From positions 53,251,670 through 53,315,669 of the forward strand of contig OZ025248.1 of the NCBI GenBank assembly GCA_964019135.1: a stretch of 64,000 nt of DNA, written 5' to 3'. The position numbers and the translations under genes were made by a program. Below the pieces are notes generated by a model. It had not been told where the DNA came from. It worked only from the letters and a program-made list of their open reading frames with translations, and did not search any database. The DNA comes from Arenicola marina. Taxonomy: Eukaryota; Annelida; Polychaeta; Arenicolidae. Below are positions 1 through 43,449 of this stretch, piece by piece (position 1 is the first letter of the stretch; each line of letters opens with the position of its first letter).

Positions 1-462
1 TAGAGGCACGGCCTTCAGCGTCTGTTATGTATGCTGTAGAAGTCTCTGATCGTCGTCTGGTATAGAGGCATGGCCTTCAGCGTCTGTGATGTATGCTGTT
101 GAAGTCTCTGATCGTCGTCTGGTATAGAGGCATGGCCTTCAGCGTCTGTGATGTATGCTGTAGAAGTCTCTGATCGTCGTCTGGTATAGAGGCACGGCCT
201 TCAGCGTCTGTGATGTATGCTGTAGAAGTCTCTGATCGTCGTCTGGTATAGAGGCATGGCCTTCAGCGTCTGTGATGTATGCTGTAGAAGTCTGATCGTC
301 GTCTGGTATAGAGGCACGGCCTTTAGCGTCTGTGATGTATGCTGTAGAAGTCTCTGATCGTCGTCTGGTATAGACGCATGGCCTTCAGCGTCTGTGATGT
401 ATGCTGTAGAAGTCTCTGATCGTCGTCTGGTATAGAGGCATGGCCTTCAGCGTCTGTGATGA
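1..462 (-). repeat. 60-bp coding minisatellite made from the CDK5RAP1 last exon
   Basis: About 7.7 tandem copies of a 60-bp unit run from the left window edge to 462, and the array may extend further left. One copy, near 290, is 2 bp shorter. The first unit on the minus strand is coding sequence of the last exon ([19 protein letters not shown]). The stop codon at 387-385 lies in the second unit, so all units further left are 3'UTR copies of coding sequence. The human ending SSQTLRGHVLCRTTLRD aligns with the first unit. Confidence 0.9.
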
Positions 463-3400
463 AGCACCCGTTATCTGAAACAATTGAGTGAATCAGCACA
501 GCTGGCACAATCCCGGAATCCAAAGAAGGTATTAGAAATTATACAGATGGTTTCTTGTAGATTGCACTTGAGAAAAAACTTGAAAGTTATCATAAAACGT
601 CGGCACAGAACTTCAGTGTGAATGCATGTATTTAAAAATATTAAAAAGTAGGAACATAACTATTATGCAAGACTAACAGTCATTCAGAAACTTTTCTTTG
701 TAGGTTATTTCGGAAGGCCCCAAAAGAGTTGTTAACAAACACATGGTCGACATGTTCCAAACTTTCAGAATGCAGACATATGTATATATCATATAAACAT
801 CCAACGAACAACTTATTATAATGTTTTTGTTTATAAACATGTCGTTGTTTACCTTGACAGCTACGTAAGTTCCTGGTGTGAGACGTGTAGATGTTCCGTC
901 ACAGCCAGCGACCGCCACATCCGGCACAATGACCTTCACATTGCCGTCATTTCGGCCAACCACGTCCGTCCCAGATTTTTTACTATACTGTAAAAAAAAA
1001 GGGAAAGATAACAATCCACAACACAACACTCGACACCAACAAGCTTGCGTATTTAATTAATCCACATGGCAAAGACAACTGATTTAGTCCATAAGCTAAA
1101 CAATATGTCACTACCAAATCGAGGGACAAGGCGTCACTGTTTTTTTTAAAATTGTCTGGCACGTCAGGTGTTTGGAATGAGGAGATGGACTTCTACAACA
1201 CCACGTACATCATGACAAAATTTAGTTCTGTGGACATAGGCTCAATTAATTAAATTAATTATTAAATTAATTATTAAAATTAATTAAAGATCGTTTCGAT
1301 CCGTTTTGGCTTCAAGCACATTCAAGCACAATTGGAAACGTTCACCAGCTCTTAATCATGGCCAAATGCAGTAAGTGTCTTCGAGCGTGAACTTCATAAG
1401 AACTTATGTCCTACATGCCATTGCATAAGTACACGTACACATTGTACAAGATCAGGCCCATAACCATTAACATATTAGGATATTAATAACCATATAAGAC
1501 AGAGAATTCATGACCTTCCAGATATTAGTAATGACTGGGATTGAACAGTTAACAAAATGTGACCTAGGCTTCTGAAATTCACTTATTTTTCCTTGTAGGG
1601 ATTTTTTCATCGTTTGCCCTGCTTTCCCTGACCTGTGGGAACCCTGCTTTTTCCCTGTGTGCCCGGGATATTATTATTCACATTCCATCACTATAACTCT
1701 GCATAAGTTAACCTGGCGGGATATAGGCAATAATTGCAACGGAATATCTAGATAGAGTTAATTAAAAATGCAACAAAGTCGAGAAAAAAAACATCCACAA
1801 GAACTGTTCCTTGGTTAAAATTTGGAATATCTCCAACATCATTACCCAAAGTATGCGCACTTTTTATTGACCACACAGATGCAGAATTTCGTGGAGTCTG
1901 GCTCATGGATTTATTTACACAGCAGTGCCTTTTATGCATTTTTACATGTACACTTTTTTTTTTGGACAAGTCTCGTTATCTTACAACCACTGCGAGAGGG
2001 ACTATCCAAGAAGATCTCAGTTATTGTGCTCTCATGGCCCCCAAGTGTGGATAATATAAATCTCTTCTTGGAGGAGAATATTCGCGGAGTCTCCACACAG
2101 CAGAGCTATACCTTCAGTAGTGAGAACATTTAGACCAGATACTCACGCCCTCTATGAGCACCAGGTGCTCCCTGCCGATCTGCGTCTGGTTGAGCTGGAG
2201 TGCCTCTTCCCTGAAGGCTGACACCAGCTCCATGTGGCGCCTGTGCTTCACGTCTTGGGCCACGTCATCAACGAGACGACGGTGTGCCGGTGTCTTCTGA
2301 AACAGGCACGGCCAACGAGAGGGCAATGAAAGGTCTTGTGAAACAGTCACGGCCAACGAGAGGGAAATAAAAGGTCTTCTGAAACAGGCACGGCCAACGA
2401 GACGGAAATGAAAGGTCTTCTGAAACAAGCACGGCCAACGAGAGGGAAATAAAAGGTCTTCTGAAACAGGCACGGCCAACGAGAGGGAAATGAAAGGTCT
2501 TCTGAAACAGTCACGGCCAACGAGAGGGCAATGAAAGGTCTTCTGAAACAGTCACGGCCAACGAGAGGGAAATGAAAGGTCTTCTGAAAGAGGCACGGCC
2601 AACGATAGGGAAATGAAAGGTCTTCTGAGACAGGCACGGCTAACGAGAGGGAAATGAAAGGTCTTCTGAAACAGGCACGGCTAACGAGAGGGAAATGAAA
2701 GGTCTTCTGAAACAGGCACGGCCAACGAGAGGGAAATGAAAGGCCTTCTGAAACAGGCACGGCCAACGAGAGGGAAATGAAAGGTCTTCTGAAACAGGCA
2801 CGGCCAACGAGAGGGAAATGAAAGGTCTTGTGAGACAGGCACGACCGACGAGAGGGAAATGAAAGGTCTTCTGAAACAGGCACGGCCAACGAGAGGGAAA
2901 TGAAAGGTCTTCTGAAACAGGCACGGCCAACGAGAGGGAAATGAAATGTCTTCTGAGACAGGCACGGCCAACGAGAGGGAAATGAAAGGTCTTCTGAGAC
3001 AGGCACGACCGACGAGAGGGAAATGAAAGGCCTTCTGAAACAGGCACGGCCAACGCCAGGGAAATGAAAGGTCTTCTGAAACAGGCACGGCCAACGAGAG
3101 GGAAATGAAAGGCCTTCTGAAACAGGCACGGCCAACGAGAGGGAAATGAAAGGTCTTCTGAAAGAGGCACGGCCAACGAGAGGGAAATGAAAGGTCTTCT
3201 GAAACAGGCACGGCCAACGAGAGGGAAATGAAAGGTCTTCTGAGACAGGCACGACCGACGAGAGGAAAATGAAAGGTCTTCTGAAACAGGCACGGCCAAC
3301 GAGAGGGAAATGAAAGGTCTTCTGAAACAGTCACGGCCAACGAGAGGGAAATGAAAGGTCTTCTGAAAGAGGCACGGCCAACGAGAGGAAAATGAAAGGT

Positions 3401-6400
3401 CTTCTGAGACAGGCACTGCCAACGAGAGGGAAATAAAAGGTCTTCTGAGGCAGGCACGACCGACGAGAGGGAAATGAAAGGCCTTCTGAAACAGGCACGG
3501 CCAACGAGAGGGAAATGAAAGGTCTTCTGAAACAGGCACGGCCAACGAGAGGGAAATGAAAGGTCTTCTGAAACAGGCACGGTAAACGAGAGGGAAATGA
3601 AAGGTCTTCTGAGACAGCCACGACCGACGAGAGGGAAATGAAAGGTCGTCTGAAACAGGCACGGCCAACGAGAGGGAAATGAAAGGTCTTCTGAAACAGT
3701 CACGGCCAACGAGAGGGAAATGAAAGGTCTTCTGAAAGAGGCACGGCCACCAACATCACACAGACAGGCTCCGAGGGAGATTCTATTGACCCACCAACTT
3801 CACACAGACGGGTGCCCAGGGATATTCTATTGACCCACCAACATCACACAGACGGGTGCCCAGGGAGATTCTATTGACCCACCAACATCACACAAACAGG
3901 TGCCAAGGGAGATTCTATTGACCCACCAACCTGTCTCATGCTGTAGGGAAAGCAGAATGCGAAGTTGTACTTGACGAGTCGGAGTAGGCTGAGGGTCGCT
4001 AGATGCTCCTCTTCAGTCTCGCCACAGAACCCCGCGATAAAGTCGCTCGTCAACGTAACATCTGGAACAATGATGACAGTAAAATACAGTACAAACAAGG
4101 AAAATTATATTACATTATAGAAGGTCATTATATTATACTATATTATTATATTATACAATCATTTGCTAAGAATCACATGTTCAATTGCTGTACATATGCC
4201 TGCCAACAGTTAGATAGGTCAATATCAAAGCTATTCGAAATTATTTACCGCTTCACGTCAGGATGTAAAATTGTTACATTTTAAAGCTTTAGTAGTGCAA
4301 GATTTAGTAATGCTTATCACTTAGCTAGCACTAATACCTTCTGCCATGTTTACCATTGCATTTTCAAGCCAATGTTACAGTTTTGTTAAATGTAAACGCT
4401 AAGCTTTCATTTCAGTATACTATGCCGATTTGTTTTAAATAGGCGGGAAACAATTGTTCGAATAATTTTAACATATGATACCCCACATTGTACTTTATCT
4501 CTGACATCTCATGTTTTGTATCGGCGTGCTCATACTATCTTAGTCATATGCACTTGAAATTTACCTCTATTAAAATCCACTAATTAAATAACATAATTAC
4601 TTTTACTAAATACGTATGTTTTAAAAGTGCCTCTAATGTCAGCGACCAACACGTTTTAACAAAAGTCCTAGGCTGAAAGTGGAGGGAGTCGTGCTGGTTA
4701 TCCCCGTTGACTCATAATTGAAGGCCTAGCAGGGAATGCCCTCTTGCAAACGAGTTGTAGAAAACATGGAAATTAAAAGTTCACAAACAGTGGGACACAC
4801 AAACAAAACAACTTACGTCGTAACTGAAGCGAGTGACATGAAGACTTTCTTCATTAATAAAGCCGATAAAGATACTAGTCAGGTCATAATTCCTTGTTAG
4901 TACGATCAAGCCTGTGAAACGATACAGTTTGAGCCCCGGTCGGAGTAATTTGACACTGGTCTCCATGCATTTTCCAGGGGCCGCCTCGATAGCTCAGTGG
5001 GCTAGAGCGTTCCCCTTGAGTGTTCTTGCCACCAGAGAGCCTAGCGGCACGTAGATTGGTTGTTCGCGTCCCGCTGTATCCATGTCTGCGGGGTCGCAGG
5101 ATAAAGATTCCATGTCCTCCTTCGCAAAGAGTAGGGGTTTACCCCCGGGTAATGCATGGCTCCACTCTCCCTTCCTCCTCCCCTTGACGCGATATGACCA
5201 AAAGTGGTTAAAGGGTCCTGAATAAACAACCAACCAACCAACCATGGATTTCTCTCAGGTCGCCGGACGCCTACCTGGGAGCAGGTCCCGGATGTGGGCG
5301 ACCAGGTCCAGGTAGGCCTGGCGACTGTAGCCCCGCCGCATCCTCTCCAGCACCGCCGTGCTGCCGCTCTGGGCAGGCAGGTGGAGGTGCTTGCACAGGT
5401 TGTCACGTTCGGCTATCAGATAGAGAACCTGCAATAAATAGGTCATAGGAAGACTTCTTGTACGAAAAGGGCATTCCTTTATTAAATAAGCACTTCAATG
5501 TGCAATACGCTCGATGGAAACGTACTTTAATGACATTTTTATAGGTGAGCCCCGCTGGCGCTAATATTTTACTTTCGAGGAAATAATTGTACAAGACTTA
5601 TCGTCAGAAATGTCGTAGCTCGTTAAAGAGAAATGGATCCTCGATTGTAGTCCGATACGAATGACAGATCTAAGCCACCACTACATAGTCATATATATAC
5701 ATAGTCAAGCTTTGTGTGTGCATATATGTACCCAGCTTTTCTGAGTTCACTTGTGCAACAGTGACATTGGGGAAGCACTATTTTAAATACTTCAGAAGTT
5801 TCAGATTTACTATTCAAAGGAGTATCTGACTAAATTGGACAGACCATAACGTGGATAAAAAAAACTCCAAATACGCTAGGGATGACGCAAATATTGATAT
5901 TTGCGTACTCTTCGCCTCTGATTTTACGGTGAATTATAAATCTAATTATTCACAACCTCATCAGGGAAGTCCTTAGGATGTGGAGACGTGAATCTGATTC
6001 TCATGTTGGGATCCACCAACGACACACTATCCAGTAGATCGGCAAAGCGTCGGCCTCCCAACTTGGGCTTGTAAACAGTCTTGAATCCCTGGACCATGGT
6101 CGTAGGCTTATCGAAAGGTATACAGGCATCCACCTGTGTCTTCATCTCGCTGGTGTCCCTGTAGCTGTTGACGTTCTGTCCCAAGAGGGTGACTACCCTG
6201 ACCCCCTGATCCGACAGTTTTCGGATCTCATCCACGATTGAGCTGATGGGTCGGCTCCGCTCGCGGCCACGTGTGAAGGGTACGATACAGTAAGTACACA
6301 TGTTGTCACAGCCTCGCATGATGGACCTGCAATACAACAGATACCTCAAGGGTACGATGCAGTAAGTACACATATTGTCACATCCTCGCATGAGGAACCT

Positions 6401-9400
6401 GCAATACATATGATACCTCAAGGGCACGATGCAGTAAGTACACATGTTGTCACATCCTCGCATGATGGACCTGCAATACAACAGATACCTCAAGGGTACG
6501 ATGCAGTAAGTACACATGTTGTCACAGCCTCGCATGATGGACCTGCAATACAACAGATACCTCAAGGGTACGATGCAGTAAGTACACATATTGTCACATC
6601 CTCGCATGAGGGACCTGCAATACAAATGATACCTCAAGGGTACGATGCAGTAAGTACACATGTTGTCACAGCCTCGCATGATGGACCTGCAATACAAATG
6701 ATACCTCAAGGGTACGATGCAGTAAGTACACACGTTGTCACAGCCTCGCATGATGGACCTGCAATACAAATGATACCTCAAGGGCACGATGCAGTAAGTA
6801 CACATGTTGTCACATCCTCGCATGATGGACCTGCAATACAAATGATAACTCAAGGGCACGATGCAGTAAGTACACATGTTGTCACATCCTCGCATGATGG
6901 ACCTGCAATACAAATGATACCTCAAGGGCACGATGCAGTAAGTACACATATTGTCACATCCTCGCATGAGGGACCTGCAATACAAATGATACCTCAAGGG
7001 TACGATGCAGTAAGTACACATGTTGTCACAGCCTCGCATGATGGACCTGCAATACAAATGATACCTCAAGGGCACGATGCAGTAAGTACACATGTTGTCA
7101 CAGCCTCGCATGAGGGACCTGCAATACAACAGATACCTCAAGGGTACGATGCAGTAAGTACACATGTTGTCACAGCCTCGCATGATGGACCTGCAATACA
7201 AATGATACCTCAAGGGCACGATGCAGTAAGTACACATGTTGTCACAGCCTCGCAAGATGCACCTGCAATACAAATGATACCTCAAGGGTACGATGCAGTA
7301 AGTACACATGTTGTCACAGCCTCGCATGATGGACCTGCAATACAAATGATACCTCAGGGGCACGATGCAGTAAGTACACATGTTGTCACAGCCTCGCATG
7401 AGGGACCTGCAATACAAATGATACCTCAGGGGCACGATGCAGTAAGTACACATGTTGTCACAGCCTCGCATGAGGGACCTGCAATACAAATGATACCTCA
7501 AGGGCACGATGCAGTAAGTACACATGTTGTCACATCCTCGCATGATGGACCTGCAATACAAATGATACCAAGGGCACGATGCAGTAAGTACACATGTTGT
7601 CACAGCCTCGCATGATGGACCTGCAATACAAATGATAACTCAAGGGCACGATGCAGTAAGTACACATGTTGTCACAGCCTCGCATGATGGATCTGCAATA
7701 CAACAGATACCTCAAGGGCACGATGCAGTAAGTACACATATTGTCACATCCTCGCATGAGGGACCTGCAATACAAATGATACCTCAAGGGCACGATGCAG
7801 TAAGTACACATGTTGTCACATCCTCGCATGATGGACCTGCAATACAAATGATACCTCAAGGGCACGATGCAGTAAGTACACATGTTGTCACAGCCTCGCA
7901 TGAGGGACCTGCAATACAACAGATACCTCAAGGGTACGATGCAGTAAGTACACATGTTGTCACAGCCTCGCATGATGGACCTGCAATACAAATGATACCT
8001 CAAGGGCACGATGCAGTAAGTACACATGTTGTCACAGCCTCGCAAGATGCACCTGCAATACAAATGATACCTCAAGGGTACGATGCAGTAAGTACACATG
8101 TTGTCACAGCCTCGCATGATGGACCTGCAATACAAATGATACCTCAGGGGCACGATGCAGTAAGTACACATGTTGTCACAGCCTCGCATGAGGGACCTGC
8201 AATACAAATGATACCTCAGGGGCACGATGCAGTAAGTACACATGTTATCACAGCCTCGCATGAGGGACCTGCAATACAAATGATACCTCAAGAGCACGAT
8301 GCAGTAAGTGCACATGTTGTCACATCCTCGCATGATGGACCTGCAATACAAATGATACCTCAAGGGCACGATGCAGTAAGTACACATGTTGTCACAGCCT
8401 CGCATGAGGGACCTGCAATACAACAGATACCTCAAGGGTACGATGCAGTAAGTACACATGTTGTCACATCCTCGCATGATGGACCTGCAATACAAATGAT
8501 ACCTCAAGGGCACGATGCAGTAAGTACACATGTTGTCACAGCCTCGCATGAGAGACCTGCAATACAACAGATACCTCAAGGGTACGATGCAGTAAGTACA
8601 CATGTTGTCACAGCCTCGCATGATGGACCTGCAATTCAAATGATACCTCAAGGGCACGATGCAGTAAGTACACATGTTGTCACAGCCTCGCATGAGGGAC
8701 CTGCAATACAACAGATACCTCAAGGGCACGATGCAGTAAGTACACATATTGTCACATCCTCGCATGATGGACCTGCAATACAAATGATACCTCAAGGAAA
8801 CGATGCAGTAAGTACACATGTTGTCACAGCCTCGCATGATGGACCTGCAATACAAATGATACCTCAAGGGCACGATGCAGTAAGTACACATGTTGTCACA
8901 GCCTCGCATGAGGGACCTGCAATACAAATGATACCTCAAGGGCACGATGCAGTAAGTACACACGTTGTCACATCCTCGCATGATGGACCTGCAATACAAA
9001 TGATACCTCAAGGGCACGATGCAGTAAGTACACATATTGTCACAGCCTCGCATGATGGACCTGCAATACAAATGATACCTCAAGGGTACGATGCAGTAAG
9101 TACACATGTTGTCACAGCCTCGCATGATGGACCTGCAATACAAATGATACCTCAAGGGCACGATGCAGTAAGTACACATGTTGTCACAGCCTCGCATGAG
9201 GGACCTGCAATACAACAGATACCTCAAGGGTACGATGCAGTAAGTACACATGTTGTCACAGCCTCGCATGATGGACCTGCAATACAAATGATACCTCAAG
9301 GGCACGATGCAGTAAGTACACATGTTGTCACAGCCTCGCATGAGGGACCTGCAATACAACAGATACCTCAAGGGCACGATGCAGTAAGTACACATATTGT

Positions 9401-12400
9401 CACATCCTCGCATGATGGACCTGCAATACAAATGATACCTCAAGGGCACGATGCAGTAAGTACACATGTTGTCACATCCTCGCATGATGGAGTTGCAATA
9501 CAAATGATACCTAAAGGGTACGATGCAGTAAGTACACATGTTGTCACAGCCTCGCATGATGGACCTGCAATACAAATGATACCTCAAGGGCACGATGCAG
9601 TAAGTACACATGTTGTCACAGCCTCGCATGAGGGACCTGCAATACAAATGATACCTCAAGGGCACGATGCAGTAAGTACACACGTTGTCACATCCTCGCA
9701 TGATGGACCTGCAATACAAATGATACCTCAAGGGCACGATGCAGTAAGTACACATGTTGTCACAGCCTCGCATGAGAGACCTGCAATACAACAGATACCT
9801 CAAGGGTACGATGCAGTAAGTACACATGTTGTCACAGCCTCGCATGATGGACCTGCAATACAAATGATACCTCAAGGGCACGATGCAGTAAGTACACATG
9901 TTGTCACAGCCTCGCATGAGGGACCTGCAATACAACAGATACCTCAAGGGTACGATGCAGTAAGTACACATGTTGTCACAGCCTCGCATGATGGACCTGC
10001 AATACAAATGATACCTCAAGGGCACGATGCAGTAAGTACACATGTTGTCACAGCCTCGCATGAGGGACCTGCAATACAACAGATACCTCAAGGGCACGAT
10101 GCAGTAAGTACACATATTGTCACATCCTCGCATGATGGACCTGCGATACAAATGATACCTCAAGGGCACGATGCAGTAAGTACACATGTTGTCACATCCT
10201 CGCATGATGGACCTGCAATACAAATGATACCTCAAGGGTACGATGCAGTAAGTACACATGTTGTCACAGCCTCGCATGATGGACCTGCAATACAAATGAT
10301 ACCTCAAGGGCACGATGCAGTAAGTACACATGTTGTCACAGCCTCGCATGAGGGACCTGCAATACAACAGATACCTCAAGGGTACGATGCAGTAAGTACA
10401 CATGTTGTCACAGCCTCGCATGATGGACCTGCAATACAAATGATACCTCAAGGGCACGATGCAGTAAGTACACACGTTGTCACATCCTCGCATGATGGAC
10501 CTGCAATACAAATGATACCTCAAGGGCACGATGCAGTAAGTACACATGTTGTCACAGCCTCGCATGAGAGACCTGCAATACAACAGATACCTCAAGGGCA
10601 CGATGCAGTAAGTACACATGTTGTCACAGCCTCGCATGAGAGACCTGCAATACAACAGATACCTCAAGGGTACGATGCAGTAAGTACACATGTTGTCACA
10701 GCCTCGCATGATGGACCTGCAATACAAATGATACCTCAAGGGCACGATGCAGTAAGTACACATGTTGTCACAGCCTCGCATGATGGACCTGCAATACAAC
10801 AGATACCTCAAGGGTACGATGCAGTAAGTACACATGTTGTCACAGCCTCGCATGATGGACCTGCAATACAAATGATACCTCAAGGGCACGATGCAGTAAG
10901 TACACATGTTGTCACAGCCTCGCATGATGGACCTGCAATACAACAGATACCTCAAGGGTACGATGCAGTAAGTACACATGTTGTCACAGCCTCGCATGAT
11001 GGACCTGCAATACAAATGATACCTCAAGGGCACGATGCAGTAAGTACACATGTTGTCACAGCCTCGCATGAGGGACCTGCAATACAACAGATACCTCAAA
11101 GGTACGATGCAGTAAGTACACATGTTGTCACAGCCTCGCATGATGGACCTGCAATACAAATGATACCTCAAGGGCACGATGCAGTAAGTACACATGTTGT
11201 CACAGCCTCGCATGAGGGACCTGCAATACAAATGATACCTCAAGGGCACGATGCAGTAAGTACACATATTGTCACATCCTCGCATGATGGACCTGCAATA
11301 CAAATGATACCTCAAGGGCACGATGCAGTAAGTACACATGTTGTCACAGCCTCGCATGATGGACCTGCAATACAACAGATACCTCAAGGGCACGATGCAG
11401 TAAGTACACATGTTGTCACATCCTCGCATGGTGGACCTGCAATACAAATGATACCTCAAGGGCACGATGCAGTAAGTACACATGTTGTCACAGCCTCGCA
11501 TGATGGACCTGCAATACAAATGATACCTCAAGGGCACGATGCAGTAAGTACACATGTTGTCACAGCCTCGCATGAGGGACCTGCAATACAAATGATACCT
11601 CAAGGGCACGATGCAGTAAGTACACATATTGTCACATCCTCGCATGATGGACCTGCAATACAAATTATACCTCAAGGGCACGATGCAGTAAGTACACATG
11701 TTGTTACAGCCTCGCATGATGGACCTACAATACAAATGATACCTCAAGGGCACGATGCAGTAAGTACACATGTTGTCACAGCCTCGCATGGTGGACCTGC
11801 AATACAAATGATACCTCAAGGGCACGATGCAGTAAGTACACATGTTGTCACAGCCTCGCATGATGGACCTGCAATACAAATGATACCTCAAGGGCACGAT
11901 GCAGTAATTACATATGTTGTCAGAGCCTCGCATGATGGACCTGCAATACAAATGATACCTCAAGGGCACGATGCAGTAAGTACACACGTTGTGAGCGTAA
12001 TCTCATAGTTTGGTTTCCGCATAACATAAGCCAAAATATTCAACATTTTATACGTGATTGTTGATGCATCTTTTCATCTATGGTTTTATAATTCCCACTA
12101 TAACGGTAGTTAAGTCAGCACTTATAATGAGAAAAAGAAATCCATTTATTCAACTTACACATAGGCAGATGATGACGTAGAATCCAATCGGACGGGCACG
12201 ACATCCGCATAGGTCTCCTCCATTGACAGCAACACGTTAACTGCAGGTCAATCAAGGCATATCAATACAGCAACACGTTAACTGCAAGTCAATCAAGGCA
12301 TATCAATACAGCAACACATTAATTGCAAGTCAATCAAGGCATATCAATACAGCAACACGTTAACTGCAAGTCAATCAAGGCATATCAATACAGCAACACA

Positions 12401-14554
12401 TTAACAGCAATTATTAAGTTAATCAAGGCCCAGAGGTTTTGGTAATGTCAGCCCATTCTGGCTTATTCACTTCATTCGCCTTATGCGCGATGCTTCTAAA
12501 TCCAGGAACTCAGGACATTCAGTGTGATCATATGCTGCAGCACAACACTTGATATATGTGATTAACGTCTCTGCAATATGTGTCCTCATTTTTGAAATTT
12601 CCTGAAAACATTTAATTTATGCGATTATTACAATTACACAAAATAATTACTTTAATCGATCGTTATAAGTGTTATACACTATCACTATGATGCTAATTTA
12701 GTTAAAATATTTAATAACACACTTAGTATTAAATAAGATTACTCTATTGAAAACCTGAGACATTAAATAGGAAATTACGTTAACCAAGGAAATAATTTTA
12801 CTGGCACAACTAGATCTAGGTCCAGCTTGGACAGACAATTAAGACGCATGTTTATCATATATGGTTGTTTCTTGGCAGAAACAATATCTGTATTGAACAT
12901 CACTACAGGGACTATTTACCTGCTGGCACTCCAGCTTCCGTCTCAGCCAACAGATGAGGCAGGTCCCTGTACGCATCCGGTCCGCAAATCACATCAACAT
13001 TATCTTCTTTTTCTAAAATTTGTTTCTTCAACCTTTCAGCCATGCAACCTGTCAGACAATCCGAAAGATTTGATTTGAAAATATCACACATGCACCACTA
13101 ACTTTAAAATCACATTAACATGACATTAAAAATTCACTTGTTCTTCGCAATGGGGCTATCCCTCCTCATCCCATGTAAGTATTTTTTTTCATGACAACGA
13201 GAAAGGGATTTTTTTCTTTTGGTCATCATGGGGTAATACCACAAAGTACTTAAAATCTCATGGGGTGTTACATACAATGAGGGTCTGTATATCATTCTAA
13301 CAACTGTGATAAAGAATATACTCAAAACAAACCTAAAATTCCAACTTTTAGTGAGGGCTTAGAAGACCCTTCATGATGTCGCCTCTTCTTCAGGTAGCCA
13401 AGATATTTTAACCGGTTCCATATTTTCTCTTCAGCCCGTTCACGTATGGAGCATGTCACCAACAGGATAACATCACTCTAAAAAGAAATGTATGTCAAAC
13501 AGCTTTAAACAGCTTAAAATTAAGTGAACAGTTTCATTGATCTTTAAAGGAGGCATGTTGTGAAAAGTCTATTCTCTGAAGACAAGTTATCTAGTAGATA
13601 TATATCTGAAGGAGTTATAAATACATCTGCTAATTTGTATCTTGATAAGTAACAACAGCATACCTCAGTAATATCTGTTGTCCTTTCAAATCCATGTTTC
13701 TGTAAAATACTCCATGCAATTTCCGCATCACTCACATTCATTTGGCACCCATAAATCTCAAAATAAACTGGAAATATAAAACAGAACTATATATATAGGT
13801 ATAGATCTATATCAACAATCACACTATAAATACGTGCATAGAAAAACCTTGCAAAATGCCCCAATACTATTAATTAGCAATATCAGATAAAGAACAATAC
13901 AATCTAGTCATGATTCAAAAAAAATGTTGTACCATATTTGTACCAGTGGAATCTATGTAATCACTGGTAGATCTATAATTTCGGACTATAAAATAAAAAT
14001 AAATAAGTAACAACTTCTATATAAGCTTACACTACAGTCTGAGCAATTAAGGACCTAATAAATAGATATTTTTGGTAATTATGCTTATAATCACCTTTTC
14101 TGTTTAATGCTTGAATGTCGTCTGTATTTATGGATGGTGAAGTCAAGCGATATTCTTCTTGCAATAAGTCACTTCTGCTTATATCTTTAGCAGTTCCCTC
14201 TGAAAAGCTATTCAATTGAGGACCAGATGCAATCTTCTCCTGAAAAGACTTTGAGAGACAGTATTCCGTGTGACTAATGCCTTTCTTTCCACTGGTGTGA
14301 TATGAACACTTTAAAATGGGCATAGTCGTCATATTTATAGGCATAGTCATAGCCATACTGGGCAGGATAGGGCATCTTTGGCGACTTGGGAGTTTGATTT
14401 TGTGTCGTCTGCTATAGGGATTTCTTTCAAGTAATATCGGCCTTACAGGGGGACGAACATTCTTCTGACAAGTGTGAAACAGGCCTGTACGGCACAATAA
14501 CGGCAAAACTGAAATAAGCTTGCATCTTGGCTTTTGTTTCAACATGTAATTCAT
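385..14554 (-). CDS. CDK5RAP1: CDK5RAP1: mitochondrial tRNA methylthiotransferase (MiaB family), complete, 11 exons
   Basis: Radical-SAM enzyme that adds the 2-methylthio group to i6A37 of mitochondrial tRNAs (family knowledge). Coding exons, 5' to 3' on the minus strand: 14554-14095, 13767-13664, 13477-13333, 13048-12920, 12240-12159, 6326-5957, 5428-5275, 4061-3931, 2296-2147, 987-853, 474-385. They sum to 1950 nt (649 aa plus stop; human is about 600) and every junction is GT/AG with matching phase. The first exon encodes a basic, weakly conserved N-terminus that could be a mitochondrial presequence. The UPF0004 domain starts near residue 154, with cluster cysteines near C161 (YGCQMNV), C197 (VTCSIRE) and C238 (GCMAE). 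The radical-SAM motif CDNMCTYC is near residues 313-320, followed by [11 protein letters not shown] and [11 protein letters not shown]. Further matches are [34 protein letters not shown] and YSMRQ. The C-terminal TRAM domain carries GRNDGN. Several exon edges are copied into minisatellites, described separately. No inactivating change was seen. Confidence 0.95.
2297..3752 (-). repeat. 41-bp minisatellite carrying the exon 9 splice acceptor of CDK5RAP1
   Basis: There are about 35 head-to-tail copies. On the gene strand each unit contains CTGTTTCAGAAGACC, which matches the genuine acceptor of exon 9 (TTTCAG, then AAGACACCGG, boundary at 2296/2297). The array touches the exon. Some units differ by a base or two (for example tctgagacag for tctgaaacag). 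Because 41 is not a multiple of 3, reading frames repeat every three units, which produces several overlapping spurious open frames. Confidence 0.93.
3753..3930 (-). repeat. 44-bp minisatellite starting at the exon 8 donor of CDK5RAP1
   Basis: Four copies of a 44-bp unit (accaacatcacacagac...ctattgaccc on the plus strand). On the gene strand the first copy begins exactly at the exon 8 donor, GTTGGTGGGTC, right after CATGAGACAG. The array runs directly into the 41-bp array, so intron 8 (3930-2297) contains essentially no unique sequence. Confidence 0.88.
4978..5243 (+). mobile_element. tRNA-derived SINE, family A, in CDK5RAP1 intron 7
   Basis: The head GATAGCTCAGTGGGCTAGAG fits a Pol III A box, and a B-box-like GTTCGCGTCCC lies about 75 bases on. 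The body includes tggctccactctcccttcct and gacgcgatatgacc, and the 3' end is a short (caac)n tail. Related copies occur at 20500-20766 and 27186-27290. It inserted next to exon 7 (donor at 5274). I cannot place it in a named SINE family. Confidence 0.72.
5957..6326 (-). CDS. CDK5RAP1: CDK5RAP1 exon 6, radical-SAM core
   Basis: This 370-nt exon begins after the acceptor TTGTATTGCAG and ends CCTGATGAG before a GT. It holds the three-cysteine motif that binds the SAM-cleaving 4Fe-4S cluster, and then the conserved TRGRERSRP and GQNVNS segments. It enters in phase 2 and leaves in phase 0. Its first 50 or so bases, with the acceptor, are the source of the 72-bp array that fills the intron upstream. 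Confidence 0.93.
6327..11998 (-). repeat. 72-bp minisatellite, about 79 copies, carrying the acceptor and radical-SAM motif of CDK5RAP1 exon 6
   Basis: The array fills almost all of intron 5. On the gene strand each unit has a polypyrimidine/acceptor TTTGTATTGCAG, then a copy of the exon 6 start encoding [17 protein letters not shown], then a donor-like TTGAG/GTATC. Units differ at a few recurring sites (ggtacg or ggcacg, agcctc or atcctc, aacag or aaatg before atacct). One unit near 7570 is short by 2 bp. Since 72 = 24 codons, frames stay open for kilobases on both strands; these are not independent genes. Confidence 0.95.
12227..12410 (-). repeat. 41-bp repeat duplicating the exon 5 acceptor of CDK5RAP1
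   Basis: About 4.5 copies of cagcaacacgttaactgcaa plus gtcaatcaaggcatatcaata. The copy nearest the gene spans the real boundary at 12240/12241 (acceptor ACCTGCAG, exon TTAACGTGTTGCTG). The others carry the same CTTGCAG/TTAACGTGTTGC junction inside the intron. It is unrelated in sequence to the other 41-bp array. Confidence 0.88.
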
Positions 14555-16302
14555 GTTGCTATCTAGGCCTAGTTAAAATAAGTTAGGTCCTAGATATAAG
14601 TCGTAAGCTGGCAAGCATGGCCAAACACCCCGAATATTGGGCTAACCTGCAGCCGGAGCCGAGGACGCACAAAAAGGAACGCACACCAGTAATAACGCTC
14701 AACTGCTTTACGCAAACAAATTTTGAAGGCGTTCCAAGGGTTCGGGTGATAAACGCCAGTTGCTGTGTACTGGTTCCCCCTCTCAATGTGGACACGCAAA
14801 GATATAAAATATCAGACAATACTTAAAGAAATTATTCTATCCATATCCAGCGGTCGCCTCTTGCGACAGCGTCCCGGCAGTCAGGGCCTCATTTTTGGTT
14901 TTATCAGGCTATCCTACCTTTCGATTGATTGTCCATTGGTCACTTTTTCACACATGTTCAATCCTTAGTAATGGTTTAAGTTTACCTTAATTGAAGATTT
15001 TAAATGTAAACCTGTAGAGGATAAAAAAAAGTGTTTTCAATTTTGTTGATGTTTCTGTGATACGCTAATGCATTGTACGTACAGTAAAATTCGCCACAAT
15101 AACCCGTGGCATAGCAACCCAGTGCCGTAAGCCTCATGATGTAAAGCAAGGTGTAAACAATAATACGATCGAACTTGTTGAGCTTTTGCTTTGGCGAGAA
15201 TATAACAAATGTGTTATTTAAAAGGTTAAGTAAACGTATAAAAGAAAAAAAACGCGCTCATTACGGCGGGATTTAGGAAATTAACCACCGAGAGACCGCT
15301 AGAATTGTTCAGGTAATAAGGGTGCTAGAGCTTTACCTCGTGTATCAAATAATTTTAAATCTATTTTAATGGTTCAAGAATGGAAATGTGAATGACCTTG
15401 ACCCGGCCCTTTCGACAAGGGTGACGTCTCGGTACAGTGGAAGGGGCTTTTGAAACGGTCGATGCCTAGTATATCCAATTAACACGCCTACTTTCTTGGG
15501 TTTTTATGTATTATATATAGGGTTTAATCATGAAGTCGTAAATTTTTAAGCTTTCTCACTGTTAAACCTTACCGTCTCGACAGCCGACCCTCCCAGTTTG
15601 GCAGTCGTCGAAGGCTAAGTAACACGCTGAGAAAATATACAAGTTCGTTGATATCCTCCTCAATGGACAGATTAACAAAAAGACACCCAGTTTATTCACA
15701 AGACCCGCACTCTGCCTAAAAGACCCACCATCTGTCGACAAGACACGCCGTCTGCCGACAAGACCCGCCGCCTGTCGAAAAGACCCGCAGTCTGTCCACA
15801 ATAAACATTGTGAAACATTCGCTCTCGAATAATGTCCGTTATTGAAATCGAAAGTTCCCAATCTTTTTTTATCACTGCAGTGAACTTTCACATAGCTTTC
15901 GGAGATCATTGACACACATGTATAAATAATACCAGAGCAGGAATAAATGACCAAATAAAAATTCCCTTTCTTGTCGTTTATTAGTCAACTCACTATCTGT
16001 AATATTGAAGTACAATTGCATTAAAAGGCACCACCAACGGTGGAACACAACCATTGTTTGCCATGTCTAAATATAACGATAACGACCTCCCTCCTTTGCA
16101 CCTGAGAATAACCGGTTGGCGTGGCTACGGGAAACGCCCGAAGCTACTGATGTTCCCATGGGAACGACCTGAAGCTACTGATGATCCAATGGAAACGGCC
16201 TGAAACTGCTGAAGTTTCCATGGAAACGGCCTGAAGCTACTGATGATCCCATGCACACGTTCGGAAGCTGCTGAAGTTGCCATGGAAACCGTGAAAATGT
16301 CG
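14555..16302. other. Intergenic interval between CDK5RAP1 5' end and UHRF1 3' end
   Basis: Mostly unique AT-rich sequence. The first 300 bases should include the CDK5RAP1 promoter and 5'UTR, but no clear element is visible. An imperfect 19-20-bp repeat of the type aagacccgc...tctg lies at about 15700-15800, and the UHRF1 3'UTR repeat follows at 16117-16290. A minus-strand AATAAA near 15980 is a possible UHRF1 polyadenylation signal. Confidence 0.5.
16117..16290 (-). repeat. About 31-bp imperfect repeat in the UHRF1 3'UTR
   Basis: About five imperfect copies of gaagctactgatgttcccatg with a following ggaacggcct lie just past the UHRF1 stop codon at 16303. They include the self-complementary core ccatgg/cccatggg. 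Confidence 0.65.
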
Positions 16303-19300
16303 TCAGCGGCCGCTCTCGTACCCAGGGAAGAGCCCGTTGAGGACGGCCATGAGGGAGTCGTTGGTTGCCATGGTGTTGTCCTTGCCCAGGTCGGTGCGAC
16401 AGGCGGGGCAGGAGTAGACCTCAGCCTTGTATGAGCGCTGGAGACAGGGCTGCAACCACACAGGGGGCGTCAGTTAGACAGCTCAGGGGTGCTCGTCAAA
16501 CAGTAGGCCATTACCGTTACATTAACTATTAAAGCCATTAACTATTATACCGCTAGCTGCTAATCGTCCAGCAACATTCTTCACCCAAATAGCTTGGTTA
16601 AAAAAAACTGTTCGCGCTTAAATATCCATACAAAACTCGTGGCGCCCACGAATCTTCAATTAACATAAACCTTGAAAAAACATACTTTCATTTGCCCCTT
16701 AGACAATATTTTAACGAAATATATTCGTATTTGAACACCGACAAAAGTTCTTGAGATAATACTAATACAATTTGAAATATAATCTTATTACCTTTTAAAT
16801 AAACATTACAAGGCTGGTAATGCTGGCATGCTGGGACCTTTAACTTGGAAAAGGCTCAAGGTGTCTATGGGTTCGCATTACCTAGCGATCAAACTACTTT
16901 TTTCCTGATGTTTGCGTCTCCTTATCTTTATCGCTGTATACCTCAGTCCGTGAATTAACTAACCTTGCACACGTTATGAAGGCACTCCGTTGTGATTGGT
17001 TTGAAAGGGATCTCTTGACAACAGACACAGACAAAGAGCTCTTCAACCTTAGCCAAAAACTTCTGAAACCGCAAAAATAAATGTTTTCGTCAAACTTTTA
17101 GCATAATTTTAGATGTGCGATATACACGTAAAGTTTTCATATGTTGTTATAACGGTGATATAACATTATTTTAGACATGCTATATACACGTAAATTATTC
17201 ATATGTAGTTGTAAGGGGGATATAACATTATTCAAGACATGCTATAAACATGTAGTGTTCATATGTAGTTGTAAAATCTCTACCCCGCCCACCCACTCGT
17301 TGACTGACCTGAGCTCCCAGACTGGCGGCCTTCACCCCCCCACCCACTCCCTGATTGACCTGAGCTCCCAGACTGGTGGTCTCCACCCCCCACCCTCCCA
17401 CTCCCTGAATAACCTGAGCTCCCAGACTGGTGGTCTTCACCCCCATCCCCCACCCACTCCCTGACTGACCTGAGCTCCCAGACTGATGGCCTCCACCCCC
17501 CACCCCCTCTCTGACTGACCTGAGCTTCCAGACTGGTGGCCTTCACCCCCCCCCCCACTCCCTGACTGACCTGAGCTCCCAGACTGGTGGTCTCCACCCC
17601 CGACCCTTCCACCCCCACCCCCCCACTCCCTGACTGACCTGAGCTCCCAGACTGGTGGCCTTCACCCCCCCCCCCACCAATTCTCTGACTGACCTGAGCT
17701 TCCAGACTGGTGGCCTTCACCCCCCCCCCCACGCTAGCCCCACTCCCTGACTGACCTGAGCTCCCAGACTGGTGGCCTTCACCCCCCCACCCCCACCAAT
17801 TCTCTGACTGACCTGAGCTCCCAGACTGGTGGCCTTCACCCCCCCCCCCACCAATTCTCTGACTGACCTGAGCTTCCAGACTGGTGGCCTTCACCCACCC
17901 CCCCCACGCCAGCCCCACTCCCTGACTGACCTGAGCTCCCAGACTGGTGGCCTTCACCCCCCCCCCACCCCCACTCCCTGACTGACCAGAGCTCCCAGAC
18001 TGGTGGCCTCCACCCCCCCCACCCACTCCCAGACTGACCTGAGCTCTCAGACTGGTGGCCTTCACCCCCCCCCCGCCCCCAATTCCCTGACTGACCTGAG
18101 CTCCCAGACTGCTGGCTTTCACCCCCATCCCCCACCCATTCCCTGACTGACCTGAGCTCCCAGACTGATGGCCTCCACCCCCCACCCCCTCTCTGACTGA
18201 CCTGAGCTCCCAGACTGGTGGCCTCCACCCCCCCCACCCACTCCCAGACTGACCTGAGCTCTCAGACTGGTGGCCTCCAACCCCCCCCCGCCCCCACCCT
18301 GACTGACCTGAGCTCCCAGACTGTTGGCCTTCACCCCCCCCCCCCTGCCCCCAACTCCCTGACTGACCTGAGCCTCCAGACTGCTGGCTTTCACCCCCAT
18401 CCCCCACCCATTCCCTGACTGACCTGAGCTCCCAGACTGCTGGCTTTCACCCCCATCCCCCACCCATTCCCTGACTGACCTGAGCTCCCAGACTGGTGGC
18501 TTTCACCCCCATCCCCCACCCACTCCCTGACTGACCTGAGCTCCCAGACTGGTGGCTTCTAGGGCTTCTTGCCACAGCTTCTCGTTTTTCCGGTCAGCCT
18601 CGATCTGGGTCCGGACGGAGGGTTCCACTTTGTAGGCTCCGACTTTTTTCTTCTTGTTGGATGGCGACTCCTTGGGGGTCGGGGATCCATCTGGGGGGGG
18701 GGGGGGTCATGATATGAGGATGTGCAGTCAATGCATGGATGGATCGAACCACTCCACCAGGGAGGCCCCCATGCTAAGGTATTCAAAGTTCACTGCCGTT
18801 TGAAATTTAGCCCGATGCATCTTCTCGCATAATTGCATCGCAGCGAATGACATCAAGACTTATTTTAAGGTGACGTAGCGCGCAGTCCACATCTTGGCCT
18901 GCTGCTTGAGCCTGAACATTGGCTGTCGTCATATTTGTACGCAACCACGATAAGAGGTCGGCAACTATTTGGTGTTCTAGTCCACAATTGTTCGAGAGAA
19001 GCCATTCTTTATATAATAAATACGCGGAATGCCGGACTCAGTTCTATCAGGGAATTAGAATATAGAAGTAAAATACTAAAAAAAATAAGAAACAATAATT
19101 CTGCTGCATCAGTACTCGTAACAGTTCAAAATGCCTTGATATAGAAACTGCTGATATATTTTCATGTATTGTTTTTAAGTTAATGAACATATAGATTACG
19201 CGAAAATCAAATCAAAATCATAGTATGCATGTTTGTACTTATTTATGACCTCTTAGCTATAAAGAAGTTTATCCAAAAAACACAAAAACATACACAAATA

Positions 19301-22300
19301 CCACGATAAAAGGTCTTTGCACTGACCTTCCTCCTCGCTGGCCACACTGTCTTTCTTCCTCTTGCGGCCCCGACCTTTAACCTTTGTGGCCGACTCCTCG
19401 CCGTTCTCCTTGGCTGCTTCCTTCTCCCTTTGACTCTCCAGCCATCCTTCCGGGTACTGTTGGGAATAAGGTACTGATATCCTTTATAACGCCAAGCCTA
19501 GACTACCGTAGAACCGCCGTTGCGTGTTTACGCGACGTGCCGTTACTTGCAGGCCGCAGGAGGCTGACCTCTTCGCCAACCCTCGTGGTTGCGTACTGAT
19601 GCGGTGTGCAGTTGCAGGACAGGAATGCTTCCGTGTGGTTATTTACAGAATCGCTTTAGCACGGACTGGCGGTTCTACGGTACTAGTGACTCAGGCAGGC
19701 GGCCGACCTCCCGGGGCTGCAACTGCACACCGCATCAGTACGCAACGGCGGTTCTACGGTACTCAGGCGGCAGACCTCACGGGGCCTGCAACTGCACACC
19801 GCATCAGTACCTAACGGCGATTCTAGGGCACTCCTATACCAGTCATCAGTTATACAGAGCTGGACGCAGTTACACTTGTCAGCACACGATTGATTTGATT
19901 GATTTACTGTTATGCATACATACAATCTTGGTCATATCAATAAATATCCATCCCGTAAGGCGGACATGTGACTTCAATGATAGTACGTTCTAACAATTCT
20001 CAACAAAATGACCGTTACTAATATCACATTGAACTGAAGATTAAAGTATAAGTAAATAGAAAAGTTCATTGCATATTACGTCGTCAAAATGAATGCTCAA
20101 AGCACAAGCGATATCGATAAAATTAACACATACATTCATATAAATAGTTATGACAACACTCTTCATGCAGTGTTCCGCGGCACAGAGCCAGGAGCCGGCG
20201 TTACCTGCATCTCTAGGCCCAGGTCCAAAACCCTCTGGCTGCCCTCTTTGGACCAGGGGGGCGGCGTGGGGTCGTCCCGCCGCAGGAAATATCGCCACAC
20301 CACGAAGCCGGACTTGCCAGGCTCAGGCCAGTACTTCACCATCTGCAACGACCAGACACGTCCACAAGGCGGGCAATGTTAGCCAGGACCCAGAGCACTC
20401 CATGCCGGCGGCGAGTGTACGTATGTATGGGTGAGTGGGGAGGGGGAGGGGGGGGGGTATCTTAGGTGCATGAGATTGGTTGGGTGGTATCTTGTGCATG
20501 TGGTTGGTTGGGTGGTTGTATATTCAGGACGCTTTAACCTCTTTTGGTCCTATCGCGTCAATGGGAGAAGGAAGGGAGAGTGGAGCCATATCCCCGGGGG
20601 TAACCCCCTACTCTTTGTGAAGAAAGACATAGGATCTTTATCCTGGGACCAAACATACATGGCCGCAGCGGCGCGCGAACCACCGATCCACGTGCCGTTA
20701 GGCTATCAGGTGGCCAGAACACTCTAGTCGAGCGCTCTAGCCTGCTGAGCTATCGGGTCGGCCCCCTTAGGTGCATGTGAAGGGTACAGATGTGCTGTAC
20801 AGCTGCACAGGAGGCCGATGGGGAGTACTGACGCCACGCTCTTCACCGATTGAAGGGGAATCACTTCATAACAGTTTATGACATAAGTCGTGTTACAAAA
20901 TTAGGACGATCATAAAAATAGCACACAGTAATTCGTTTATTATGAAAAATTTGTAAAAATGAGATAACGGCAATACAATTTAACAGGGTATGTTTGCAGA
21001 TAACACGGCACTCATTGTATTGGTCACACTCTCATTATCATGGCAGACAACCAAGTTCTGAACCTAATTAGCCAATTTTCTCATCCTATAGATACCGCCG
21101 CAACGGTTGACCTCGTCCCAGTGTACAATGTTCGTTTATTATCACCATGTGCATTCATAACGTACAAACAAACATCGTAGTAACTGGACTTAAGCTATAC
21201 AGGGAGATATACCAGAACCGAAAATCTAACACACATGGTTAAAACCACCCTGGGCCGCTATCCCAATAAGGTACGCCAACCCTCACCTTATAGATACCGT
21301 CGTACCGGCTGCCCGCCTCCCAGTGTACGCCAACCCTCACCTTATAGATACCATCGTACCTGCTGCCCTCCTCCCAGTGTACGCCAACCCTCACCTTATA
21401 GATACCGTCGTACCGGCTGCCCTCCTCCCAGTGTACGCCAACCCTCACCTTATAGATACCGTCGTACCGGCTGCCCTCCTCCCAGTGTACGCCAACCCTC
21501 ACCTTATAGATACCGTCGTACCGGCTGCCCTCGTCCCAGTGTACGCCAACCCTCACCTTATAGATACCGTCGTACCGGCTGCCCTCCTAGGGCCCAGTGT
21601 ACGCCAACCCTCACCTTATAGATACCGTCGTATCAGTGTACGCCAACCCTCACCTTATAGATACCGTCGTACCGGCTGCCCTCCTCCCAGTTTACGCCAA
21701 CCCTCACCTTATAGATACCGTCGTACCGGCTGCCCTCCTCCCAGTGTACGCCAACCCTCACCTTATAGATACCGTCGTACCGGCTGCCCTCCTCCCAGTG
21801 TACGCCAACCCTCACCTTATAGATACTGTCGTACCGGCTGCCCTCCTCCCAGTGTACGCCAACCCTCACCTTATAGATACCGTCGTAACGGTTGCCCTCC
21901 TCCGGCGCATACTCCGAGTGCTTGCGTCCCTTACAGTTGCGCACCACGCGGACTGGCTTCCCGGCCTTCCAGTCTTTGGCCTCGGCGCCTTTCTTGTTGT
22001 CCAGCGGCGCGTTACAGTTCTTGGCCAGCGCCCTGGAACACAATTGTCTCGCACTCACTTGGCTGCGGTCCATGGTGCCACGGGGTCGGGGATAACCCAT
22101 CCCGCACTGTGAGACTGGGTACTTTAAAAACGCTGGATTTGTTACCTCTTAGGGTGAAATTTAGCTCGGTTCGTGCGAGAGAATGCATGGCTACATGCCT
22201 TCCGGTACCAGATGGTAGAAAACTCCTATCCTAACCAAAGGCTCAGAGGGGATCTAGGGGACTTGTGCCGAGATAAACCCATCTTGGGTTATAATGGGGG

Positions 22301-43100: not shown

Positions 43101-43449
43101 ATTGTCGACCATTTTGATCATTTTGGTCTATATTTCCCTTTTCAAGGTCAAATCGCGTCCCATTTCAATCGATATTGTTCTGATCGATATTCATCCATAC
43201 ACTGCAGTCAATTTGGCATAGTTCTCACTCAAACCCTGTGCCAAACGGACTTTTTATAGTGGCGAACGACACATTTAATAGGCTAGGGGGGCGTCAAATT
43301 ACCCTAGGCATGCAACAAATTCCAACAATTCTTGACAAAAAATTTCACCTTGGTATGAATTTCACCTTCGAGTATGTTGACCTATTACATGATATACTCG
43401 AAGGAAAACTTCCAAGGTCGGTGGTAAGGGTGCGAAAACATGGCAAAAT

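What the first reader, a model, noticed from the sequence alone, without database searches (positions are those of the whole stretch)
1..21902. Recurrent minisatellites that copy exon-intron junctions in two neighbouring genes
Six arrays have a unit that contains a splice junction or coding end of the adjacent exon: CDK5RAP1 exon 11 coding end (60 bp), exon 9 acceptor (41 bp), exon 6 acceptor (72 bp) and exon 5 acceptor (41 bp); UHRF1 exon 12 donor (54 bp) and exon 15 donor (about 55 bp). A seventh (44 bp) begins exactly at a donor. The sequences are unrelated, so the process recurred independently. That points to a mechanism that favours splice junctions, either in how duplications arise (for example R-loop or nick-associated slippage in transcribed DNA) or in which ones are tolerated, since the outermost copy keeps splicing. 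From memory, junction-spanning minisatellites were described at the amphioxus Adh locus; two more genes with this density would suggest a genome-wide habit.
Basis: partly seen in the sequence, partly recalled or inferred. Interest (0 to 1): 0.88.

Follow-up and report, generated by a model that had tools for sequence, protein, structure and literature searches.

The report
Minisatellites copying splice junctions
In two neighbouring animal genes several tandem repeats have copied the edge of an exon, in one case about 79 times, yet both genes still read as intact; this looks like the 'mirage' repeats already described in lancelets.

Summary
The window carries intact CDK5RAP1 (11 coding exons, 649 aa) and UHRF1 (16 coding exons, 818 aa), both on the minus strand. 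A 44-bp array starts exactly at the exon-8 donor. A 62-bp array (not 60) covers the CDK5RAP1 coding end, and its second copy supplies the stop codon.

Against random placement in array-collapsed genes, spanning is 5 of 17 versus 2.40 expected (P=0.08). Spanning or within 8 bp is 8 of 17 versus 2.89 (P=0.0035); for arrays of 4 or more copies 8 of 11 versus 1.93 (P=7e-5). The cut-offs were chosen afterwards. Enrichment is likely, on a small sample.

Splice-junction minisatellites are published in amphioxus as 'mirages' (PMC3087553, PMC3902484). I file this as a new member, with more copies than the globin and PGBD5 cases. A junction-favouring mutation mechanism is not shown. Species and RNA splicing could not be tested.

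The parts
385..14554 (-). CDK5RAP1 coding region, 11 coding exons: 14554-14095, 13767-13664, 13477-13333, 13048-12920, 12240-12159, 6326-5957, 5428-5275, 4061-3931, 2296-2147, 987-853, 474-385; 649 aa
   Evidence: GT/AG junctions and open frame; NCBIfam TIGR01574 MiaB 390.4 bits, cut-off 355.3; PDB 7mjv E=1.6e-116, gapless at joins 4/5, 5/6 and 8/9
16303..35075 (-). UHRF1 coding region, 16 coding exons: 35075-34923, 33336-33196, 30552-30197, 29103-28882, 28538-28417, 27979-27793, 27575-27452, 26043-25936, 23186-23082, 22849-22743, 22032-21870, 20342-20205, 19456-19327, 18690-18536, 17062-16964, 16449-16303; 818 aa
   Evidence: Pfam SAD_SRA, TTD, ubiquitin, PHD above their cut-offs; PDB 9lpk UHRF1 E=1.9e-271
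1..461 (-). 62-bp array (7.5 copies in the window, runs off its edge) over the CDK5RAP1 coding end; copy 2 supplies HHRR and the TGA stop at 387-385
2292..3749 (-). 41-bp array, 35.6 copies, spans the CDK5RAP1 exon-9 acceptor (5 bp exonic); AG kept in 34 of 36 copies
3747..3930 (-). 44-bp array, 4.2 copies, starts exactly at the CDK5RAP1 exon-8 donor; with the 41-bp array it makes up all of intron 8
   Evidence: intron 8 array fraction 1.00
6276..11992 (-). 72-bp array, 79.4 copies, spans the CDK5RAP1 exon-6 acceptor; each unit holds the acceptor and 51 bp coding for CDNMCTYC, the radical-SAM motif (motif name recalled); AG kept in 78 of 79 copies; 97% of intron 5
12226..12410 (-). 41-bp array, 4.5 copies, spans the CDK5RAP1 exon-5 acceptor (15 bp exonic); AG kept in 3 of 5 copies
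17283..18556 (-). about 56-bp array, 22.9 copies, spans the UHRF1 exon-14 donor (21 bp exonic); CAGGT present 22 times
21271..21903 (-). 54-bp array, 12 copies, spans the UHRF1 exon-11 donor (34 bp exonic); GT kept in 12 of 12 copies
21080..21114 (-). decayed copy of the exon-11 donor unit about 160 bp beyond the array; carries AACCGTT like the functional copy, not AGCCGGT like the other array copies
   Evidence: local score 25; 0 of 253 intronic control positions reached 16, 1 of 121 exonic controls did
23192..23399 (-).
26051..27100 (-).

Best explanation
These are 'mirage'-type minisatellites. A short tandem duplication happened to include an exon edge and was then expanded and homogenised, most simply by unequal exchange, inside the intron. 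The copy contiguous with the exon body remained the functional splice site. Shown: the arrays, the retained AG or GT in most copies, the identity of functional and decoy site contexts in four of five arrays, and an intact conserved protein when the exon-contiguous copy is used. Inferred: that site choice is positional, most simply by exon definition, because the exon-contiguous copy gives the shortest exon on both the acceptor and the donor side. Such a choice makes junction-crossing arrays nearly harmless, and purifying selection on the exon-side copy keeps one template of the repeat from decaying. The excess of multi-copy arrays at junctions would then reflect long persistence at an anchored edge as much as any mutation bias.
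For: Arrays and junction overlap. AG or GT kept in 78 of 79, 34 of 36 and 12 of 12 copies. Counting the functional copy itself, its acceptor context -20..+3 occurs exactly 20 times in the 72-bp array and 15 times in the 41-bp exon-9 array, and the donor context -3..+6 occurs 12 times in the 54-bp and 20 times in the 56-bp array. Protein homology runs without a gap through joins 4/5, 5/6 and 8/9 of CDK5RAP1 and 11/12 of UHRF1. Arrays of 4 or more copies lie at or within 8 bp of a junction in 8 of 11 cases versus 1.93 expected; arrays under 4 copies in 0 of 6. A decayed copy lies beside the exon-11 donor array. In the exonic part of the 72-bp array (78 of 79 copies used), variants seen in 4 or more copies are synonymous in the exon-6 frame in 5 of 7 cases (P=0.010) and all distinct variants in 11 of 24 (P=0.015); the other five frames show no comparable excess. 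For published mirages the authors infer undisturbed splicing from Adh3 data and globin RT-PCR (PMC3087553, passages).
Against: No RNA was available, so which copy is spliced is inferred. Singletons alone show no clear synonymous excess (6 of 14, P=0.09), and six frames were looked at. Copies near the functional end of the 72-bp array are no more like the functional copy than distant ones (Spearman rho -0.06, P=0.59), and in the 54-bp array the functional copy differs at two sites from the other copies; neither fits continuous seeding from the exon copy. The exon-5 acceptor's exact context occurs once only, so there local sequence could matter. At UHRF1 join 14/15 the protein alignments have gaps. 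Strict spanning is not significant over all 17 arrays (P=0.08). Three of the largest arrays (35 bp x 62, 29 bp x 78, 23 bp x about 25) lie inside introns, 59, 78 and 204 bp from the nearest junction.
Confidence: 0.7

Rival explanations
1. Pure coincidence plus tolerance: the genome is full of minisatellites, exons are dense, and some arrays cross a junction by chance.
For: Listed arrays cover 48% of the two-gene stretch and 31.5% of the rest of the window. About 2.4 of 17 spanning arrays are expected by random placement and 5 are seen, P=0.08.
Against: 8 of 17 lie within 8 bp versus 2.89 expected (P=0.0035); 8 of 11 multi-copy arrays versus 1.93 (P=7e-5). Of 56 combinations of cut-offs, many repeating one another, 47 gave P of 0.04 or less and 9 gave 0.0401 to 0.084. 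Tolerance alone predicts no excess over plain intron.
Confidence: 0.3
2. A mutation bias makes arrays at splice junctions, for example R-loops or nicks in transcribed DNA with a G-rich non-template strand.
For: Sense-strand GC skew is positive in 7 of 8 junction arrays and in 1 of 7 other intronic arrays (units of 20 bp or more, 15 of 17 arrays), Mann-Whitney P=0.0022.
Against: The test was chosen after seeing unit composition. Exonic sequence is itself slightly G-rich (skew +0.080, non-array introns +0.024). The 41-bp exon-9 array has negative skew (-0.23), and the 72-bp array, the largest, is near zero (+0.06). No direct evidence of R-loops exists here.
Confidence: 0.15
3. The arrays work as splicing devices: AG|GT in each unit acts as a dual-specific or recursive splice site, giving protein isoforms with variable numbers of in-frame repeats, as at human UBC.
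For: Units of the 72-, 54- and 56-bp arrays carry AG|GT at the junction. The 72- and 54-bp units are multiples of 3. From the exon-proximal acceptors of the 72-bp array (17 found by pattern, the functional one included) the frame is open into exon 6. There is a synonymous excess in the exon-6 frame. UBC precedent: PMC10809524 (abstract and passages).
Against: Extra copies would insert repeats into the radical-SAM core or the SRA domain. From all 16 acceptors printed upstream of a 70-bp unit near 7641 (of 56 found there) the frame meets a stop. Two of five spanning arrays lack AG|GT. Published mirages are thought not to disturb splicing.
Confidence: 0.07
4. The arrays, or their copy numbers, are assembly artefacts.
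For: A globin mirage was aberrantly assembled in the B. floridae draft (PMC3087553, supplementary legend).
Against: Copies of the 72-bp array differ by 35 distinct variants, and a block of about nine units recurs, with variation, 11 units away (by eye), which simple misassembly does not create. That this many arrays with unrelated units are all artefacts is unlikely; the copy numbers could still be wrong.
Confidence: 0.05

Closest known systems
Amphioxus 'mirage' minisatellites (Adh3, globins BflGb6 and BflGb9, troponin C; PGBD5 likened to them)
   Same: Tandem repeats of minisatellite size duplicating an intron-exon boundary, 5' or 3'; AG/GT present in many copies; splicing thought undisturbed; unit length 10-72 bp at Adh3 and 150-160 bp in globins (PMC3087553, PMC3902484, passages).
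   Different: Copy number here reaches about 79, against 6 and 3 in the two BflGb6 haplotypes and 2 to 7 in PGBD5; Adh3 copy numbers were not in the passages I saw. Here five junctions are spanned and three more abutted among 50 in two neighbouring genes, and one intron consists wholly of two arrays; I have no comparable density for other genes. Species and length polymorphism were not testable.
Human UBC / VCX3A tandem arrays of dual-specific splice sites (AGGT)
   Same: An AG|GT in nearly every tandem unit (72-, 54- and 56-bp arrays here); an intron joining two such sites would be a whole multiple of the unit.
   Different: At UBC the array is coding and isoforms vary in repeat number (PMC10809524, abstract and passages); here the array is predicted to be removed, and no isoform evidence exists.
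Intron gain by tandem genomic duplication of AGGT (Rogers model, potato RdRp case)
   Same: Duplication of a segment carrying splice signals.
   Different: Here duplications enlarge existing introns; no new intron position was shown. The model is known to me through PMC3087553; the potato paper PMC4974935 was seen in a search listing only.

Membership tests
Amphioxus mirage minisatellite | Tandem repeat unit spans an exon-intron boundary | tested here: met
   Five arrays with 5 to 51 bp of exon inside the array
Amphioxus mirage minisatellite | Many, not necessarily all, copies carry the AG or GT signal | tested here: met
   78 of 79, 34 of 36, 3 of 5 and 12 of 12 copies, and CAGGT 22 times in a 22.9-copy array
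Amphioxus mirage minisatellite | Normal mRNA splicing despite the array | not testable with these tools
   Only predicted: exon-contiguous copies give proteins that align with 7mjv and 9lpk
Amphioxus mirage minisatellite | Length instability between haplotypes or in soma | not testable with these tools
   One haplotype only; no genome held
Amphioxus mirage minisatellite | Interior copies homogenised, boundary copy excluded | tested here: inconclusive
   54-bp array: the functional copy differs at two sites from the others; 72-bp, 41-bp and 62-bp arrays: the functional copy is close to the consensus
Amphioxus mirage minisatellite | Host is a cephalochordate | not testable with these tools
Dual-specific splice-site tandem array (UBC type) | AG|GT core in each unit | tested here: inconclusive
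   Met in three of five spanning arrays (72, 54, 56 bp), not in the two 41-bp arrays, whose acceptors are CAG|TTA and CAG|AAG
Dual-specific splice-site tandem array (UBC type) | Isoforms differing by whole units | not testable with these tools
   No RNA data

The most novel reading that the evidence does not exclude
Splice junctions are anchors for minisatellite growth across this genome. The exon-side copy, kept by purifying selection and chosen by exon definition, acts as a template that cannot decay, so arrays at junctions persist, re-form after decay and grow to dozens of copies, turning whole introns into copies of an exon edge. The synonymous-biased variant pool of the 72-bp array and the decayed copy beside the UHRF1 exon-11 donor would be the traces of this.
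Probability: 0.22. Interest if true: 0.75.

Novelty: new member of a known kind. Interest (0 to 1): 0.45.

Why it matters
If junction arrays are really favoured, they give a natural test of how the spliceosome picks one of dozens of identical sites, a source of rapid intron growth, and a possible route to new introns and exons. The window makes the question concrete: one array holds 20 exact copies of an acceptor context, the functional one included, with only position to distinguish them. A genome-wide count with placement controls would show in one computation whether this is a habit or a coincidence.

Tried and rejected
Whole-genome test: not possible, no genome is held. Hidden junction repeats: 60-bp windows at all 50 junctions against 253 intronic and 121 exonic controls, arrays masked; score 16 or more in 1 of 50 junctions (the exon-11 relic), 0 of 253 and 1 of 121. 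Permissive TRF added low-scoring arrays, not counted in any test; four of them (scores 51 to 79) lie at or within 3 bp of a junction: 13753-13797 spanning CDK5RAP1 acceptor 2, 813-851 at donor 10, 16453-16503 at UHRF1 acceptor 16, and 21964-22030 inside UHRF1 exon 11. Shared origin of units: rejected. Polarity of the 72-bp array towards the functional copy: not found (rho -0.06; singletons 8, 8, 6 by thirds). Stop avoidance in the array: no stop variants appear in the exonic part in the exon-6 frame, but only 0.9 were expected, so this is uninformative. RNA families at gathering score and tRNAs: none. Other genes: nine ORFs between 45.6 and 64 kb checked, no match above a Pfam cut-off, two weak ones at E=0.05; 35-45.6 kb was not checked. 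A first pattern count of splice dinucleotides skipped units (73 hits in the 72-bp array, 18 in the 41-bp exon-9 array), so I used the aligned copies. Copy numbers of the 54- and 23-bp arrays (11.7, 24.7) are array length over unit. The original Adh paper (Nucleic Acids Res 2002) is not held and was not read; what I say of it comes from the citing papers. Two further amphioxus papers were looked at in passages: PMC2632668 notes partial exons with splice sites in VCBP3 introns and ordinary tandem-repeat density at its locus, PMC2206037 only mentions tandem repeats in huntingtin scaffolds.

Full report
What is there. The first 35 kb of the window holds two genes on the minus strand with complete coding regions. 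CDK5RAP1 has 11 coding exons and a 649-aa open frame. It passes the cut-off of the NCBIfam MiaB model and aligns without a gap to MiaB 7mjv through the exon 4/5, 5/6 and 8/9 joins. UHRF1 has 16 coding exons and an 818-aa frame with SRA, TTD, ubiquitin-like and PHD domains, and aligns to human UHRF1 9lpk at E=1.9e-271, without a gap at join 11/12 and with a 6-residue gap at join 14/15. All 25 introns are GT-AG.

The arrays. Five arrays span splice junctions. They are CDK5RAP1 acceptor 5 (41 bp x 4.5, 15 bp of exon), acceptor 6 (72 bp x about 79, 51 bp of exon) and acceptor 9 (41 bp x 36, 5 bp of exon), UHRF1 donor 11 (54 bp x 12, 34 bp of exon) and donor 14 (about 56 bp x 23, 21 bp of exon). 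A 44-bp array begins at the first base of the exon-8 donor, and with the 41-bp array it makes up the whole of intron 8 (array fraction 1.00). CDK5RAP1 intron 5 is 97% array; UHRF1 intron 14 is also 97%, counting a second, 62-bp array. The 72-bp unit carries the codons for CDNMCTYC, the radical-SAM cluster motif (motif name recalled). A 62-bp array covers the end of the CDK5RAP1 coding sequence. Its copies are out of frame with one another, and the stop codon now in frame lies in copy 2. Two further arrays end 5 and 7 bp before UHRF1 acceptors 9 and 8.

Is it more than chance? I collapsed every array to one unit and placed units at random in the two genes, excluding wholly exonic positions. Strict spanning: 5 of 17 arrays, 2.40 expected, P=0.08. 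Spanning or within 8 bp: 8 of 17, 2.89 expected, P=0.0035. For arrays of 4 or more copies: 5 of 11 spanning (1.62 expected, P=0.014) and 8 of 11 within 8 bp (1.93 expected, P=7e-5); for arrays under 4 copies, 0 of 6. Over gaps of 0, 4, 8 and 20 bp, copy cut-offs from 2 to 20, and with the 44-bp array left out, P ranged from 7e-5 to 0.084. The 8-bp and 4-copy limits were set after seeing the data. The 62-bp coding-end array and a 31-bp array just past the UHRF1 stop are not in these counts because they touch no splice junction. I conclude that an excess is likely, about 2- to 4-fold, on a small sample.

How the junctions survive. Most copies keep the splice dinucleotide: 78 of 79 (72 bp), 34 of 36 and 3 of 5 (the two 41-bp arrays), 12 of 12 (54 bp), and CAGGT 22 times in the 22.9-copy 56-bp array. 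Counting the functional copy itself, the exon-6 acceptor context -20..+3 occurs exactly 20 times in its array, that of exon 9 15 times, the donor context -3..+6 of exon 11 12 times and of exon 14 20 times; that of exon 5 occurs once. Local sequence at this range therefore cannot explain the choice in four of the five, and position must. Choosing the copy next to the exon body, the first donor and the last acceptor, is what exon definition predicts. This step is inference; no RNA was available.

Traces of history. In 78 of the 79 copies of the 72-bp array, 24 distinct variants fall in the exonic part, and 11 are synonymous in the exon-6 frame (expected fraction 0.24, P=0.015). Of the 7 variants seen in at least 4 copies, 5 are synonymous (P=0.010); of 14 singletons, 6 (P=0.09). 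None of the other five frames shows a comparable excess; the lowest P among them is 0.058, for singletons in one reverse frame. This suggests that common variants once passed through a copy under coding constraint, but copies near the functional end are not more like it, and in the 54-bp array the functional copy differs at two sites from the others. A decayed unit about 160 bp beyond the 54-bp array keeps the functional copy's AACCGTT, so that junction was duplicated at least twice, or the array was once longer.

Mechanism. The R-loop idea has one exploratory point in its favour: positive sense-strand GC skew in 7 of 8 junction arrays and 1 of 7 other intronic arrays, P=0.0022. Exon and donor composition is a plain confounder. 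I regard the origin of the first duplication as open, and persistence at an edge kept by selection as the simplest reason for the excess.

Comparison with what is known. PMC3087553 (passages read, abstract among them) describes 'mirages' in amphioxus globins and cites Adh3 and two other loci, which by their reference titles are a retinol dehydrogenase and presenilin. It calls the mechanism unclear, infers undisturbed splicing, and reports length instability, somatic at Adh3. PMC3902484 (passages) reports 60- and 108-bp repeats at PGBD5 splice sites and cites troponin C. By title, none of the papers listed by my searches is a genome-wide survey of such arrays; three of the lists were cut (25 of 85, 20 of 65 and 15 of 16 papers), and subscription papers are mostly not held. 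PMC10809524 (abstract and passages) shows that tandem AG|GT units in human UBC are spliced to varying repeat number; three of the five arrays here have AG|GT at the junction, so such isoforms are possible, though I think them unlikely inside these domains. The finding is a new member of the mirage kind, with more copies than the globin and PGBD5 cases, provided that the species is a cephalochordate, which I could not test.

Noticed in passing
56853-62460: 54-bp unit repeated about 104 times outside the two genes, with long open frames on both strands; the unit holds a tRNA A-box-like stretch (motif recalled).
   Followed up: no
43448-45385 and 36176-36905: A 162-bp x 12 array made of 25-bp CACGTGG...CCACG sub-units, and a 109-bp x 6.7 array also rich in CACGTG.
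   Followed up: no
20520-20790, 27210-27290 and inverted 4960-5240: Dispersed similar sequence with tRNA-like stretches, possibly a SINE, seen by eye; ARAGORN and Rfam at gathering score found nothing in the window.
   Followed up: partly
21080-21114: Decayed copy of the UHRF1 exon-11 donor unit outside its array.
   Followed up: yes
19501-19820: Four overlapping inverted-repeat pairs in UHRF1 intron 12, one with 30-nt arms fully complementary.
   Followed up: no
16130-16289: A 31-bp array starts 13 bp past the UHRF1 stop codon, in the presumed 3' untranslated region, so both genes carry an array at or just past the coding end.
   Followed up: no
6276-11992: A block of about nine units of the 72-bp array (about 8361-7714) recurs with variation 11 units away (about 7571-6924), by eye, which points to large unequal exchanges.
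   Followed up: partly
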